From: a virus
Virus record (IMG/VR): IMGVR_UViG_3300019880_000035
Coordinates: 1 to 24,729 of that record
Length of the DNA stretch: 24,729 nt
Direction: 5' to 3' (one strand)
The position numbers and the translations under genes were made by a program. Numbering within the stretch: the first letter of the stretch is position 1; each line of letters starts with the position of its first letter. Shown here piece by piece: positions 729-5,219 of the stretch. Below the pieces are notes generated by a model. That model was given only the letters and a program-made list of their open reading frames with translations. It was not told the origin of the DNA and did not search any database.

Positions 729-816
729 GCGGGTATGGCGGAACTGGCAGACGCACCGGACTTAAAATCCGTTGATTTAATAAATCGTGCAGGTTCGACT
801 CCTGTTACCCGCACCA
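729..816 (+). tRNA. tRNA-Leu (anticodon UAA)
   Basis: Class II tRNA of 88 bases. The acceptor arm GCGGGTA (729-735) pairs with TACCCGC (806-812), followed by discriminator A813 and an encoded CCA (814-816). The anticodon stem CCGGA/TCCGT holds the loop CTTAAAA, so the anticodon is TAA, reading UUA and UUG. A long variable arm precedes a T arm with loop TTCGACT, as expected for leucine tRNA. TTA codons are common in the surrounding genes, so the tRNA may support phage codon use in its host. Confidence 0.95.
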
Positions 817-834
817 TTTAAATTTAGGAGAACC

Positions 835-1005
835 ATGACAGTTAAAGAATTGAAAGAGCAATTAGAGGATTTTGGCGATCACCTTGAGATAGTGGTCGCA
901 AATGAAGATGGGCAATATGAAATTGATTCAATTGATACTGCACCACTTCATGTTAACTCTCAAAAAGAGGGAATGACTGGCGTTCTAATTTACACAAGTA
1001 ACTAA
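835..1005 (+). CDS. Small acidic protein, unrecognised
   Basis: 56 residues from ATG 835, which is preceded by TTTAGGAGAACC, a strong ribosome site just after the tRNA 3' end. The sequence opens MTVKELKEQLEDFGDHLEI, an amphipathic helix followed by a strand-rich acidic part. Two other short proteins here (15447-15680 and 21466-21651) open in a similar way, with a hydrophobic helix and then a strand carrying acidic residues. They may be one family of small phage proteins of unknown role. There are no cysteines and no membrane segment. Confidence 0.75.
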   Translation: MTVKELKEQLEDFGDHLEIVVANEDGQYEIDSIDTAPLHVNSQKEGMTGVLIYTSN

Positions 1006-1013
1006 CAGAGGGG

Positions 1014-1109
1014 TTCCGGTTCTGTCTCTTGTAAGCGAAACAGATTAAATGATAGTTTAGGCTATCAGCCGGAATTAATGTGCAGCAAAAGTTCCAAGCC
1101 TTTTGCACA
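1014..1109 (+). promoter_or_regulatory. Structured 5' leader RNA, copy 1 (possible cis-regulator)
   Basis: Gene-free leader between a stop at 1005 and an ATG at 1121. A three-way junction can be drawn by eye: P1 TTCCGG (1014-1019) with CCGGAA (1069-1074); P2 TCTGT (1021-1025) with ACAGA (1040-1044); P3 GATAG (1051-1055) with CTATC (1062-1066). It is followed by TAATGTGCA and a two-part hairpin: outer TGTGC/GCACA (1079-1083/1105-1109), inner AAAAG/CTTTT (1087-1091/1100-1104), with the 8-base loop TTCCAAGC (1092-1099). The ribosome site AAGGAG begins two bases after the hairpin. The leader at 2138-2289 repeats this design with different stem sequences, which supports a folded RNA. I could not match it to a riboswitch class I know. 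Confidence 0.55.
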
Positions 1110-1120
1110 TAAGGAGAAAT

Positions 1121-1339
1121 ATGGAAACTAAACTAAAATATTCGCTTATCTTTTCCGACAAGGACGTTCCGAAGGCTGAAATTCTAATTATAGACGGCCC
1201 AATTGAAATAAGAGATTTTCAGTTACTGTCGCAGGAACGTGTTTTAGCAATTAACCTCAGCGGAAGGGGTTGGCATTTAAATCGACGAGGAAATGATCGA
1301 AGTTTTCGCAATCTCAAAATAGAGGCGTTTGTTGAATGA
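1121..1339 (+). CDS. Small unrecognised protein behind a structured leader
   Basis: 72 residues, starting at ATG 1121 with AAGGAG at 1111-1116. The residues alternate in the manner of a small beta-rich domain (KYSLIF, AEILIIDGPIEI), ending in an Arg-rich segment (RGWHLNRRGNDRSFRN). It has no cysteines, signal or membrane segment. Its last codons overlap the next start (ATGA at 1336-1339), so the two genes are probably translationally coupled and governed by the same leader RNA. Function unknown. Confidence 0.75.
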   Translation: METKLKYSLIFSDKDVPKAEILIIDGPIEIRDFQLLSQERVLAINLSGRGWHLNRRGNDRSFRNLKIEAFVE

Positions 1340-2046
1340 GCTATGAAAGAGTAAGCCCGAGACTTGTTCAGACAATCATAGAGATATATCCAAATCAAAA
1401 GTTTAATGATGGAGATTTAATCTATGATTGGATTGACAGCGCCATCGACTATATGAAAGAAAATATAGAAAATGGAACTGCCAATGATTTCGTACAATCA
1501 ATGTATAAAGCTTACACAACTTATCTAAGTCTTACGAAAGGACAATTACGCGGATTACTTAACTGTATTCGTGCAGAGGTTCTGGCAGCAGATAAAAATG
1601 CCGATGCAGTTATTACAGAGCTAATTACAGGTGAGAAGCCACTCGATTTGAGATCACTTCCGTCCGGTAGTTATGCAGTTGACCACGGCGATGAAACTGC
1701 ATTCTATAAGATTGATGTGATAAATGACGAGAAATCAAAGTGGAACGGATGGGTATTTGTTAATATCCTCGCAAGTGATACAAAGATTAAATGTGGTTCT
1801 CAGCGTCCCGGTCAAACATATCAAGGAACGCAAGAAAATCTTCTAAGAGAGATTCTTAAAGACCCACTCAAAGCAATGAGTTTGTTTGGTCATAAAATTG
1901 GTCGATGCGGTATTTGTGGCCGCACTCTAACTGATGCTGAATCAATAGAAATGGGCATTGGCCCTATATGTGCTCAAAAATCAGGATTTAGCATGTTTGA
2001 GAAAGATGTTCTAAAAGCACTCGGTTTTGGAACCAATTTTAAATAA
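1336..2046 (+). CDS. DUF6011-like protein with C-terminal zinc motif
   Basis: 236 residues, start coupled to the upstream gene by ATGA. The C-terminal part has RCGICGRTLTD at 190-200 and GIGPICAQK at 207-215, so C191, C194 and C212 are likely metal ligands. This pattern (GxCxxCGRxLTDxxSxxxGIGPxC) is the signature I associate with DUF6011 domains, which are common in phages. The middle part (LPSGSYAV at 108-115, then WVFVNILASD) resembles the domain that often precedes it. Its role is not established; a nucleic-acid or replication accessory function would fit the SNF2 helicase gene nearby. Confident on the motif, weak on function. Confidence 0.8.
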   Translation: MSYERVSPRLVQTIIEIYPNQKFNDGDLIYDWIDSAIDYMKENIENGTANDFVQSMYKAYTTYLSLTKGQLRGLLNCIRAEVLAADKNADAVITELITGEKPLDLRSLPSGSYAVDHGDETAFYKIDVINDEKSKWNGWVFVNILASDTKIKCGSQRPGQTYQGTQENLLREILKDPLKAMSLFGHKIGRCGICGRTLTDAESIEMGIGPICAQKSGFSMFEKDVLKALGFGTNFK

Positions 2047-2049
2047 CAA

Positions 2050-2072
2050 ATGTGATAGTAATGATATCACAT
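2050..2072 (+). repeat. Perfect 8-bp inverted repeat upstream of a promoter
   Basis: ATGTGATA (2050-2057) and TATCACAT (2065-2072) are perfect inverted copies around a 7-base loop. They lie just after the stop of the DUF6011-like gene and 20 bases upstream of the -35 box at 2093. It could be a protein operator or a weak terminator; no run of T follows, which argues against a strong intrinsic terminator. Confidence 0.5.
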
Positions 2073-2092
2073 TATCTACCTGAACAAGTGTA

Positions 2093-2121
2093 TTGACACC
2101 CGTTTGAGCGTCCGGTAACAT
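2093..2121 (+). promoter_or_regulatory. Promoter (TTGACA, 17 bp, TAACAT)
   Basis: A perfect -35 hexamer TTGACA (2093-2098) and a -10 TAACAT (2116-2121) are separated by 17 bases in a 260-base gene-free region. Transcription would start near 2128 and make a leader of about 180 bases before the ATG at 2308. This is the best-looking sigma-70-type promoter on the + strand of the window. It would drive the acidic peptide, SWIM protein and SNF2 helicase genes. Confidence 0.65.
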
Positions 2122-2137
2122 TAGAAATTCAGAGGAA

Positions 2138-2289
2138 ATTGGGTTTAGGGTAGTTTCCAGTTATTCCAGTTGGAAACGCAATTGCATGAACTGGCTGCAA
2201 ACCAGAATAAGAGTAGGCGCGAATACTCAAAGAGATAGATTGCAACTATCCGCCCAATCGTAATGTGCATCTTGGTTCCAAGCCCAAGA
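2138..2289 (+). promoter_or_regulatory. Structured 5' leader RNA, copy 2 (possible cis-regulator)
   Basis: This is the untranslated leader following the promoter at 2093. Closing helix ATTGGG (2138-2143) pairs with CCCAAT (2253-2258). Inside are GTTTCCA/TGGAAAC (2153-2159/2171-2177), CTGG/CCAG (2191-2194/2202-2205), GAGTA/TACTC (2211-2215/2224-2228) and GATAG/CTATC (2234-2238/2246-2250). Then TAATGTGCA (2261-2269) leads to the hairpin TCTTGG/CCAAGA (2270-2275/2284-2289) with loop TTCCAAGC. The P3 helix, TAATGTGCA and the loop match copy 1 at 1014-1109 exactly, while the P1 and last-hairpin stems differ but still pair. The ribosome site follows at 2294-2299. Confidence 0.55.
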
Positions 2290-2307: not shown

Positions 2308-2448
2308 ATGGCAGATTACGATAGAGACATTCTTCCTTATCGTACTTTTGATGAACCAGAAGATGATTCTGAGAAATTAGAAGAAGAGATAAGGAGTGAT
2401 GATTTTGACGAAACTGGCGGTGCATGGGGTGACTATAAAAATGGTTAA
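2308..2448 (+). CDS. Small acidic peptide
   Basis: 46 residues from ATG 2308, with AAAGGAGAG ahead of it. The peptide is very acidic, about one third Asp and Glu (for example DEPEDDSEKLEEE), and has no cysteines or hydrophobic segment. It is first in the transcript led by the promoter at 2093 and the structured leader, and its end overlaps the next gene by 8 bases. It could be a DNA-mimic or a leader-coupled peptide, but nothing in the sequence settles this. Confidence 0.65.
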   Translation: MADYDRDILPYRTFDEPEDDSEKLEEEIRSDDFDETGGAWGDYKNG

Positions 2449-2689
2449 AACATTCACCAAAAATGTTACGTCAAGTGAAATGGCGAATCTACGTCATGCG
2501 TGGAAGATTGACGAGAATCATTACCGCGTATTTGGTCGGGATGGCGATAGTTATGTTGTTTTCATAGTTGTTGATAACAAAGTAATTATCGTTATCGCTT
2601 GTCCGTGTCAGGCAGGGAGTTTTGGAAACCCCTGTTTTCACAAGACGGTTGTAACTAGGAGGCTATTGAGAGAGAAACAAATTGTCTAG
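2441..2689 (+). CDS. SWIM zinc-finger protein
   Basis: 82 residues from ATG 2441, which overlaps the end of the acidic peptide gene. Starts at 2396 or 2399 are in frame, but the AAGGAG at 2391-2396 is too close to them. Residues 54-67 form C-x-C-x8-C-x-H (C54, C56, C65, H67), the SWIM zinc-finger pattern, preceded by strands (YVVFIVVDNKVIIVIA). SWIM domains bind DNA or proteins and are often found beside or fused to SNF2 helicases; here the SNF2 gene follows directly with an 8-base overlap. A role as accessory subunit of that helicase is likely but inferred. Confidence 0.8.
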   Translation: MVKTFTKNVTSSEMANLRHAWKIDENHYRVFGRDGDSYVVFIVVDNKVIIVIACPCQAGSFGNPCFHKTVVTRRLLREKQIV

Positions 2690-5219
2690 CGATAAAGCAC
2701 TAAATTCACAAGAATTAAAAGCATTCATGGAATATGCGAAAGCGCATAATGCCATCATGCAAAAATTACAGGCAGATGAAAGAGAGGTTAGCTCTTTTTA
2801 TACATCGGGAAGTACATCTCATTATGAGCTTCAAACTCCCGATCCTGAGCCTGAAGAAATAAAGCCAGTTGGCCCCTCGCTTTTAATGAAAGCAGTTGGT
2901 CAATTAGCACATCAATCACTTCAGTCTGCGGAACCTGATCCCTTTATCATTGGACTTTCAGTTCTTGGTGAAGAGAAATGGGTTCCAAAGCAAAGAATGG
3001 CCGCGTTTCTTCTTTGCACGACTAAATACAGAAAGAGTCTTGAAGGGTTAGGATTTGATGTTTCAATGATTACCAATCCCGATCTAGAGAAGCAACCAGA
3101 AACCAAATCAGTTAAAGTCGTCAAGGAAATTTACTGCGATGATAGAAGTATGGGATTTATTCTTCACTTCCGTCATCTTCCAGTAAATGAATTCAAGAAC
3201 GTACGTGATGGCGTTTCGCAAATAGTTGGGCGGCAATATCACAACGGAACCGCAGTCGGAACACGTATGAATGAACCACATTGGCTAGTTTCGGGAGATG
3301 CACCCTCAGTTACTTCTTTAGTGAAGTATATTTGGGGAGCATTTAATGGGCATGGAAGAATTATTCCTGCCGAACCGTCAGAATGGACAATCCATGAGGG
3401 TGTTGCAGATAGAATTCAATGGATTCTAACTCGCGCAACTCAACTACGAGCAATGTCAGGCGCGCACTTTTCAGACTGGCGACCAAGAAATGATTACAGT
3501 CATCTTAAAAATGGAAAGATCGTTGACTTATATCCATATCAAATGGCTGGAATCGAGTACGCCTTAACTCAAACTGAAGAGTCTCGATTATCCGCTGGTA
3601 GATATGGTGATGGCGTTTTAGTCGGTGATCCAATGGGATTAGGTAAAACCGCAGAAGCTATTGTTACCGTATCTGAATCATGGGAAAGGGAACTAGAAAA
3701 GAATCCAAACCTGAAGCGTGAGGATTTGAAAGTTCTAGTTATCTGTCCTGCATCCGTTAAGATCAACTGGCAAAGAGAAATCTTAGAATGGGTTGGAAAG
3801 TTTGGTTACACTTCTCAGATTTTGAGAGGCAATCGAATTCAGCCGATTTGGGGTAACTTTGTCATTTGCAATCCTTCGCTAATAAAGAAGGACTACGATC
3901 AAGAGTTAAGAGATTGGAGTCCCTCAGTTCTATACACCATGATTCTTGCTCAGAAGTGGTTTGGAATCACGGCTGATGAATCACATCAATATAAGAATGA
4001 GAGGGCACAGCGAACAGTAAATGCACTTGAACTCTTTTCTGGAAAGAGATGGAGTTCAAGTGATATGGCAAAGATTCCTTGGAGATTCCCGGTTCCAATT
4101 AGAATCATGTTGTCTGGTTCGCCAGTTCTAAATAGACCAGGAGAATTTGCTTCACAACTTGAAGCACTTGGAATTCTGGATCAGTTCGGTGGTCGTAGTC
4201 GATTTGAAAGTATGTATGGTTCAACTCGCAATAAAAATCGATTAGTCGAGATGCACGAAAGATTGATGGAGCGTGGTTATCTTCGCCGCGAGAAAGAGGA
4301 TATGGCATTGACTCCTGAAATGAGAATAGTGCCATTAAAGAATGTTCCAAGGCACGTTCTAGATACCAACAAGTCAAAGCGTGAAGATTGGCCGAGACTT
4401 CTTCAGGAATGGGATTATGAGTTCCTACCGGGAGTTCTTGGTCAGTTGCCGCCGAAGATTTCAACTCCGGTGTTGGTTGAGATTACCAATAGAAAAGAGT
4501 ATGACTTCGCAGAGAAGAACTTTATTCAATGGTTAAAGGAACACTACAAAGACTTTGACGATGCCGACCAGAGAGTTTCAAGAGCCGCATCAAATGAGGC
4601 GCTTGTTAAATTCAACATTCTAAAGCATATGTCAGGCAGAGGAAAGGTCAAAGCATTCATTGACTGGACAGAACAGTTTATGAGTGAAACTGAAGATCAA
4701 AAGTTAGTCGTTTACGTCGATCACCTAGATGTATTCCATGCAATAAAGGATCACTTTCCTAACTCCGCTGGAATTCTAGGTGGACAAACCGAAGAAGATC
4801 GTCAGCAAAATATTGATGATTTTCAAGAGAAGCCCAATATCAGATTGATGGTTGCAATGTTAACCGCTGGTGGCATCGGAATTACATTAACTGCCGCTAG
4901 TCATCTAGTCTTTTTGGAACTAGGATGGACACCTGCAATTCACGATCAGGCCGAAGCTAGAATTTGGGGCCGCGTTAATGACCTTCACGGTGCGATGATT
5001 TACTGGTTCTTAGGTGAGAGAACTGTTGACTCTCATGTTGCACAATTAATTGACAGTAAAAGAGATATAGTGTCAGCTTCTACACAGGGAGCCGACTCTG
5101 ATGAAACTGCATTAATTACAGTCATGGCAATGAACCTAATGAGAGAGCGTGAGGAACAGGCCAAAACAGTATTCGATAACATCATGCAGTCACCGGACGA
5201 ATCGGACGACGAAGAATAA
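2682..5219 (+). CDS. SNF2-family DNA helicase/translocase
   Basis: 845 residues. The TTG at 2682 is chosen because GAGAGAGAAACAA stands before it, the same spacing as other starts here; ATG 2727 is the alternative. Motif I is GDPMGLGKT at 315-323 (K322), motif Ia has VICPASVKINWQREI, motif II is the DESH box at 432-435, motif III is LSGSP. The C-terminal half has AGGIGITLTAASHLVFLE (motif V) and QAEARIWGR (motif VI, with the arginine finger). This is a full SNF2 ATPase that probably moves along double-stranded DNA and remodels forks or protein-DNA complexes. Residues of roughly 125-220 loosely resemble the annealing-helicase (HARP-like) domain of SMARCAL1, which is tentative. A nuclease domain is not seen. 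Confidence 0.93.
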   Translation: MSSDKALNSQELKAFMEYAKAHNAIMQKLQADEREVSSFYTSGSTSHYELQTPDPEPEEIKPVGPSLLMKAVGQLAHQSLQSAEPDPFIIGLSVLGEEKWVPKQRMAAFLLCTTKYRKSLEGLGFDVSMITNPDLEKQPETKSVKVVKEIYCDDRSMGFILHFRHLPVNEFKNVRDGVSQIVGRQYHNGTAVGTRMNEPHWLVSGDAPSVTSLVKYIWGAFNGHGRIIPAEPSEWTIHEGVADRIQWILTRATQLRAMSGAHFSDWRPRNDYSHLKNGKIVDLYPYQMAGIEYALTQTEESRLSAGRYGDGVLVGDPMGLGKTAEAIVTVSESWERELEKNPNLKREDLKVLVICPASVKINWQREILEWVGKFGYTSQILRGNRIQPIWGNFVICNPSLIKKDYDQELRDWSPSVLYTMILAQKWFGITADESHQYKNERAQRTVNALELFSGKRWSSSDMAKIPWRFPVPIRIMLSGSPVLNRPGEFASQLEALGILDQFGGRSRFESMYGSTRNKNRLVEMHERLMERGYLRREKEDMALTPEMRIVPLKNVPRHVLDTNKSKREDWPRLLQEWDYEFLPGVLGQLPPKISTPVLVEITNRKEYDFAEKNFIQWLKEHYKDFDDADQRVSRAASNEALVKFNILKHMSGRGKVKAFIDWTEQFMSETEDQKLVVYVDHLDVFHAIKDHFPNSAGILGGQTEEDRQQNIDDFQEKPNIRLMVAMLTAGGIGITLTAASHLVFLELGWTPAIHDQAEARIWGRVNDLHGAMIYWFLGERTVDSHVAQLIDSKRDIVSASTQGADSDETALITVMAMNLMREREEQAKTVFDNIMQSPDESDDEE

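What the first reader, a model, noticed from the sequence alone, without database searches (positions are those of the whole stretch)
1014..2289. A folded leader RNA occurs twice with changed but still paired stems
Leaders at 1014-1109 and 2138-2289 share GATAG/CTATC, TAATGTGCA and an 8-base hairpin loop TTCCAAGC at the same places, right before strong ribosome sites. The closing helix (TTCCGG/CCGGAA versus ATTGGG/CCCAAT) and the last stem (AAAAG/CTTTT versus TCTTGG/CCAAGA) differ in sequence yet remain complementary. Changed bases that keep pairing point to selection on structure. The design, a junction domain followed by a hairpin near the ribosome site, resembles a translational riboswitch or a protein-binding operator, but it matches no class I know. 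It would control the DUF6011-like gene in one case and the SWIM/SNF2 genes in the other.
Basis: partly seen in the sequence, partly recalled or inferred. Interest (0 to 1): 0.72.

Follow-up and report, generated by a model that had tools for sequence, protein, structure and literature searches.

The report
Twister ribozymes between phage genes
The two repeated leader RNAs are self-cutting twister ribozymes (a known class, rare type P5) placed just before two phage gene groups, and the same ribozyme stands between successive genes, up to nine per contig, in other phages, which makes the unknown role of phage ribozymes directly testable.

Summary
Both leaders are type-P5 twister self-cleaving ribozymes, not a riboswitch or operator. 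The shared letters are the twister core. Rfam Twister-P5 scores copy 1 at 36.6 bits (gathering 37.6). A covariance model built from 40 other viral twisters, without the window, finds copy 1 (E 1e-9) and the 3' part of copy 2 (E 2e-7). Expected cuts: U1076^A1077 and U2261^A2262. Copy 2 has one P2 mismatch, so its activity is less sure.

The wider finding: in IMG/VR contigs, type-P5 twisters recur between cistrons, up to nine per contig, on the gene strand. Of 65 in 11 arrays, 51 lie between a stop codon 0-7 nt upstream and a ribosome site plus start codon downstream (4% at random positions). Helices and both pseudoknots covary. A cultured phage, Tunturi_4, carries four in annotated intergenic gaps. 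Most likely they cut the polycistronic mRNA between genes; cleavage and purpose are inferred, not shown. Ribozymes near phage genes were already published; I found no held paper describing one-per-cistron arrays, but key papers were unavailable.

The parts
1005..1106 (+). Copy 1: type-P5 twister ribozyme. P2 5' ACA 1005-1007; L1' GAGGG 1008-1012; P1 GUUCCGG/CCGGAAU 1013-1019/1069-1075 capped by a three-way junction; UAA 1076-1078; P2 3' UGU 1079-1081; L2 GCA 1082-1084; P4 GCAAAAG/CUUUUGC 1085-1091/1100-1106; loop UUCCAAGC 1092-1099
   Evidence: Rfam RF02684 36.6 bits, E 1.3e-5; independent model R1 40.7 bits, E 1.2e-9; P2, P1 and P4 all in the MFE fold
1076..1077 (+). Predicted scissile U-A step of copy 1
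   Evidence: Homology to the twister U-A cleavage site next to P1 (PMC5408937); inferred
2130..2289 (+). Copy 2: type-P5 twister ribozyme with a P1 insert of about 110 nt. P2 5' CA 2130-2131; L1' GAGGA 2132-2136; P1 AUUGGG/CCCAAU 2138-2143/2253-2258; UAA 2261-2263; UGU 2264-2266; GCA 2267-2269; P4 UCUUGG/CCAAGA 2270-2275/2284-2289; loop UUCCAAGC 2276-2283
   Evidence: R1 32.0 bits, E 2.4e-7 for the 3' part, with a length-limited nearer 5' strand at 2226-2289; Rfam Twister-P5 17.1 bits; distal CAGAGG strand 2/20000 shuffles. P2 third pair is a U-U mismatch and 1 nt is extra beside the scissile step
2261..2262 (+). Predicted scissile U-A step of copy 2
   Evidence: As for copy 1; inferred
1051..1066 (+). 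GATAG/CTATC hairpin in the P1 cap of copy 1, 2 nt from P1 (the same in copy 2 at 2234-2250)
   Evidence: Sequence; function unknown, possibly a shared tertiary or sensor element
835..1005 (+). Upstream cistron whose stop codon TAA (1003-1005) abuts CAGAGG of copy 1; its last A is a P2 base
   Evidence: ORF list; same abutment as in the arrays
1121..1339 (+). Small ORF (72 aa) downstream of copy 1, no family
1336..2046 (+). DUF6011 protein (PF19474), second cistron after copy 1
   Evidence: Pfam E 2.7e-14; a twister-array contig also has a DUF6011 gene second after a twister (L123)
2093..2121 (+). Promoter-like TTGACA-17-TAACAT just upstream of copy 2
   Evidence: 10 of 12 match; the scan found no more promoter-like sites than shuffles do
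2308..5219 (+). Cistrons downstream of copy 2: 46-aa ORF, SWIM-like ORF (2441-2689), SNF2 helicase (2682-5219)
   Evidence: SNF2 Pfam E 5e-17, PHROG 62 E 2.8e-74

Best explanation
Both leaders are type-P5 twister self-cleaving ribozymes. Each folds P2, P1 and P4, held together by pseudoknots T1 (L1' GAGGR with loop UYCC) and T2 (L2 GC with loop GC), and should cut at the U-A step 3' of P1 (U1076^A1077; U2261^A2262). The cut would leave the upstream RNA ending in the P1 hairpin with a 2',3'-cyclic phosphate. The downstream mRNA would start with a 5'-OH, AAUGUGCA, the P4 hairpin, then the ribosome site. The likely job is processing of a polycistronic phage mRNA between cistrons, so that neighbouring genes get separate half-lives and translation. 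Because the stop codon of the upstream gene is often built into the P2 strand, a terminating ribosome would block folding, so cutting may be gated by translation. Shown: sequence, structure, covariation, position. Inferred: activity, ends, purpose, gating. Rough confidence: identity 0.95 for copy 1 and 0.88 for copy 2; intercistronic processing role 0.65; translation gating 0.3.
For: Rfam RF02684 hit on copy 1. Model R1, from 40 viral twisters without the window, finds copies 1 and 2 at E 1.2e-9 and 2.4e-7; next best window hit E 2.1. All conserved core elements (GAGG, UAAUG, GCA, CCAAGC) are present in both copies. T1 covaries in 91 viral twisters: GGG/CCC 55, GGA/UCC 27, GUG/CAC 3, GAG/CUC 2, UGG/CCA 1; T2 varies as GC/GC, GG/CC, AC/GU, AG/CU, pairing in 90 of 90 with letters. 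Copy 2 has GGA/UCC; copy 1 has GGG/UCC (one G-U). Whole-structure covariation score 0.636 against 0.142 in shuffles (0/500) and 0.045-0.105 in slid controls. Position: 54/65 array twisters have an ORF stop ending 0-7 nt upstream (one at +4; control 12.5%), 61/65 an SD+start within 60 nt (25%), both 51/65 (4%); copy 1 fits exactly. Eleven contigs carry 5-9 each, all on one strand. Four in the cultured phage Tunturi_4, in gaps between independently annotated genes.
Against: Neither copy passes Rfam's gathering score (36.6 and 17.1 against 37.6); the long P1 inserts probably explain part of this. Copy 2 has a U-U mismatch in P2 and an extra base beside the scissile step, and the automated search chose a nearer 5' strand (2226), not CAGAGG at 2130. 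Copy 2 lies 83 nt after the upstream stop, behind a promoter-like site, so it fits the stop-abutting layout less well. In one E. coli study a twister cutting in the 5' UTR with the ribosome site free did not change expression (PMC5052635), so the benefit of cutting is not obvious. No cleavage data exist here.
Confidence: 0.85

Rival explanations
1. Ligand-regulated twisters: the extended P1 caps (three-way junction with GATAG/CTATC; about 110 nt in copy 2) are sensor domains that switch self-cleavage, a natural ribozyme-based switch.
For: Both window copies have unusually long P1 caps sharing a hairpin of identical stem sequence at identical spacing; long caps occur in a minority of other phage twisters (L120, L117, L124, L129). 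PMC5052635 suggested regulatory roles for variable P1/P5 domains.
Against: No Rfam aptamer in the caps. Other long caps mostly fold as extended hairpins and do not share GATAG/CTATC. Only two copies are available, so the cap cannot be tested for covariation.
Confidence: 0.1
2. A translational riboswitch or protein-binding operator, as first proposed: the last hairpin masks or presents the ribosome site.
For: The last hairpin ends about 4 nt upstream of the purine-rich ribosome site in both copies.
Against: The conserved letters are the twister core with both pseudoknots covarying in relatives. The ribosome site is not masked in the predicted structures of copy 2 and only weakly paired in copy 1.
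Confidence: 0.03
3. Decayed twisters: homologous to ribozymes but no longer cutting; kept as 5' hairpins or passive structures.
For: Sub-threshold Rfam scores; copy 2 P2 mismatch and extra base; copy 1 G-U in T1.
Against: All strongly conserved core letters are intact in both copies, and stems changed with pairing kept. P1 is reported dispensable for cleavage (PMC5408937), so the P1 irregularity need not matter.
Confidence: 0.1
4. Excision and ligation: the two twisters cut out the 1185-nt RNA carrying the small ORF and DUF6011, whose 5'-OH and cyclic-phosphate ends are joined by RtcB into a circle or healed.
For: Twister products are RtcB substrates (own knowledge); one array contig encodes RtcB about 3 kb upstream of its array (G006, E 1e-118).
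Against: RtcB is in only 1 of 32 twister records, and not in the window; records are fragments, and host RtcB is possible.
Confidence: 0.05

Closest known systems
Type-P5 twister ribozyme (Rfam RF02684)
   Same: Core letters, P1/P2/P4, strand order of the P5 permutation, T1 and T2, U-A scissile step
   Different: P1 capped by a junction domain (49-nt cap in copy 1, about 110 nt in copy 2); P2 of 3 bp (2 bp + mismatch in copy 2) and no fourth pair; scores just under (copy 1) and well under (copy 2) Rfam's gathering cut-off
Type-P1 twister (RF03160) and twister-sister
   Same: P4 loop similarity; RF03160 is hit weakly by the copy 2 loop (16.1 bits)
   Different: Strand order is P5, not P1. Twister-sister shows no pseudoknots and is cut on the opposite strand (PMC5408937)
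glmS ribozyme-riboswitch
   Same: Self-cleaving RNA in a 5' leader, leaving a 5'-OH mRNA (own knowledge)
   Different: Unrelated fold; no evidence of a cofactor here
Ribozyme-gene associations of hammerhead, twister, pistol, hatchet (Roth 2014, Weinberg 2015, as cited in PMC10085705)
   Same: Enrichment near phage genes and near other ribozymes, reason unknown
   Different: Here a per-cistron layout with the stop codon in or beside the P2 strand is measured, in arrays where only type-P5 twisters were detected

Membership tests
Twister ribozyme, type P5 (RF02684) | Score above Rfam gathering cut-off (37.6 bits) | tested here: not met
   36.6 for copy 1, 17.1 for copy 2; 83 matches in 30 other viral contigs pass. 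This cut-off is a curation threshold, not a defining biochemical feature; an independent model finds both.
Twister ribozyme, type P5 (RF02684) | Conserved L1, L1', L2 and L4 letters (GAG, UAA, GC, CCAAGC) | tested here: met
   All present in both copies
Twister ribozyme, type P5 (RF02684) | Stems P1, P2, P4 in P5 strand order | tested here: met
   Copy 1: all three in the MFE. Copy 2: P1 and P4 met, P2 only 2 bp + U-U mismatch, so inconclusive for P2 there
Twister ribozyme, type P5 (RF02684) | Pseudoknot T1, three pairs L1'-L4 | tested here: met
   Copy 1 G-C, G-C, G-U; copy 2 G-C, G-C, A-U. Covaries across 91 relatives
Twister ribozyme, type P5 (RF02684) | Pseudoknot T2, L2 GC with L4 GC | tested here: met
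   GC/GC in both; relatives covary
Twister ribozyme, type P5 (RF02684) | Self-cleavage at the U-A step | not testable with these tools
   Needs RNA in vitro
Riboswitch | Match to a known aptamer class | tested here: not met
   No Rfam riboswitch in either leader

The most novel reading that the evidence does not exclude
In a group of tailed phages almost every cistron or pair of cistrons of a long operon is preceded by its own twister ribozyme, with the upstream stop codon built into the catalytic fold, so that the polycistronic mRNA is cut into gene-sized pieces in a way gated by translation termination: a ribozyme-based mRNA segmentation system.
Probability: 0.3. Interest if true: 0.85.

Novelty: new member of a known kind. 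Interest (0 to 1): 0.58.

Why it matters
Twister and other small ribozymes were known to cluster near phage genes and near one another, with the reason unknown (PMC10085705). The layout found here (stop codon, ribozyme, ribosome site, start codon; many per operon in arrays; pseudoknots kept by compensatory change) points to intercistronic mRNA processing. It also supplies a cultured phage-host pair, Tunturi_4 on Tunturiibacter, in which the question can be tested by 5'-OH RNA end mapping. For the window, it replaces a putative new riboswitch by a specific biochemical prediction at two nucleotides.

Tried and rejected
TAATGTGCA + TTCCAAGC alone in viral contigs gave 56 hits that, as listed with their flanks, look like chance or coding matches rather than ribozymes. 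CAGAGG with a 42-72-nt cap and exact TAATGTGCA gave none. Close relatives of the window phage by DUF6011 and SNF2 proteins: one weak locus and distant helicases only, so the leaders could not be followed in near kin. The genome search RF02684 on the window found nothing although cmscan does; I attribute this to the fast first look and the long inserts. Pseudomonas phage JBD67 resembled a query but has no convincing twister; Phage Phass-1 has one weak candidate among tRNA genes (20.8 bits). Genome contigs: the 3-bp-P2 pattern found none. RtcB as a general partner: rejected (1 of 32). Simple recent duplication: rejected, because the copies differ outside the core. Searches were malformed requests.

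Full report
Observation. The two leaders are as described: the pattern TAATGTGCA-N(3-20)-TTCCAAGC occurs twice and never in shuffles, and the named stems exist.

Identity. Rfam's Twister-P5 model matches 1004-1103 at 36.6 bits, E 1.3e-5, just below its gathering score of 37.6. Copy 2 is found only weakly by Rfam (17.1 bits). I attribute this to its P1 insert of about 110 nt, probably longer than the search length the model allows. I therefore collected type-P5 twisters from viral contigs by pattern, aligned 40 and built a model without the window. It finds copy 1 at 40.7 bits (E 1.2e-9) and the 3' part of copy 2 at 32.0 bits (E 2.4e-7); the next window hit has E 2.1. For copy 2 the model pairs a nearer AAGAGA strand. 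CAGAGGA at 2130 is the better partner: its CAGAGG is identical to the consensus, it gives a perfect T1 (GGA/UCC, plus A2137-U2276) and a 6-bp P1, a combination reached by 2 of 20,000 shuffles.

Anatomy of copy 1: P2 A1005-C-A / U1079-G-U; L1' GAGGG 1008-1012; P1 1013-1019/1069-1075; UAA 1076-1078; L2 GCA 1082-1084; P4 1085-1091/1100-1106; loop UUCCAAGC 1092-1099. T1: G1010-C1095, G1011-C1094, G1012-U1093. T2: G1082-C1099, C1083-G1098. Copy 2 is equivalent, with T1 G2134-C2279, G2135-C2278, A2136-U2277 and T2 G2267-C2283, C2268-G2282. It has a U-U mismatch as third P2 pair and one unpaired base more beside the scissile step. Naming of stems, pseudoknots and the U-A step follows PMC5408937.

Relatives. 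A Rfam search of 31 whole IMG/VR records that held a pattern hit gave at least one Twister-P5 match in each, over the cut-off in 30; none of 14 control genomes matched at the same E-value limit. These records were chosen because they held the pattern, so this is not a frequency. Eleven records carry 5 to 9 twisters within about 2 to 7 kb, all on one strand. Cut-outs of these arrays (84 kb) hold 64 matches over the gathering score and no other Rfam family over its own. In 91 twisters the helices P1, P2, P4 and T1 are 97.8% paired, with a covariation score of 0.636 against 0.142 in shuffles and 0.045-0.105 in slid controls. T1 appears as five different triplet pairs, 88 of 89 complementary, and T2 as GC/GC, GG/CC, AC/GU and AG/CU, 90 of 90 able to pair, wobble allowed. 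The alignment was fitted to the helices but not to T1 or T2, which the model does not contain. Sequences within one array are related, so counts are not independent events.

Position. For 65 array twisters, an open frame of at least 40 codons ends 0-7 nt upstream of CAGAGG (one at +4) in 54, against 12.5% of random positions on the same strands. A start codon with a ribosome site follows within 60 nt in 61 (25%); both hold in 51 (4%). Often the stop is TAG directly before CAGAGG, its G being a P2 base. In the window, copy 1 fits exactly: TAA 1003-1005 abuts CAGAGG, and ATG follows at 1121. Copy 2 stands 83 nt after the DUF6011 stop, behind a promoter-like TTGACA-17-TAACAT (such sites are no commoner here than in shuffles), and before ATG 2308. 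One array contig (L123) has a DUF6011 gene second after a twister, as the window does. A cultured phage, Tunturiibacter phage Tunturi_4, has four twisters (63.5, 46.6, 41.9 and 39.5 bits), each in a gap between annotated genes, two of them overlapping the upstream stop by 2 nt; its paper does not mention ribozymes.

Mechanism. The best reading is that the RNA cuts itself between cistrons. The upstream mRNA would end in the P1 hairpin, and the downstream mRNA would begin with a 5'-OH and the P4 hairpin before its ribosome site. What the phage gains is inferred: separate stability and translation of cistrons. The overlap of stop codon and P2 suggests that a terminating ribosome prevents folding, so cutting might follow translation; this is a hypothesis. 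Ligation by RtcB is not a general partner (1 of 32 records). Cleavage itself was not and could not be tested here.

Novelty. Twister type P5 is a published class, and enrichment of ribozymes near phage genes and near one another has been published with the reason unknown (PMC10085705). I found no held paper describing twisters at successive cistrons of a phage operon, but the two primary papers and a 2019 review are not in the library, so novelty of the arrays is unproven. The window's own peculiarity is the large P1 cap with a shared GATAG/CTATC hairpin; whether it senses something is open.

Noticed in passing
window 729-816: tRNA-Leu (anticodon TAA) upstream of the twister-containing gene cluster.
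   Followed up: no
G006:C1:50628-51827 (minus strand): A phage contig with a twister array encodes an RtcB RNA ligase about 3 kb upstream of the array; RtcB joins the kind of ends that twisters make.
   Followed up: partly
L127 11047-11108, 11970-12035, 14205-14266, 15787-15851 (PP885687.1): Four twister-P5 ribozymes in intergenic gaps of cultured Tunturiibacter phage Tunturi_4, with rare T1 variants GUG/CAC and GAG/CUC that keep pairing.
   Followed up: yes
L128 1453-1518 (Phage Phass-1, OQ749652.1): Weak twister-like match (20.8 bits) between tRNA genes of a code-15 gut phage.
   Followed up: no
window 2049-2073: Inverted repeat AATGTGATA-gtaatga-TATCACATT just after the DUF6011 gene, upstream of a promoter-like site; possible operator or terminator hairpin.
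   Followed up: no
window 2441-2689: Small ORF with a SWIM-like CxCxnCxH motif directly before the SNF2 helicase; no Pfam SWIM match.
   Followed up: partly
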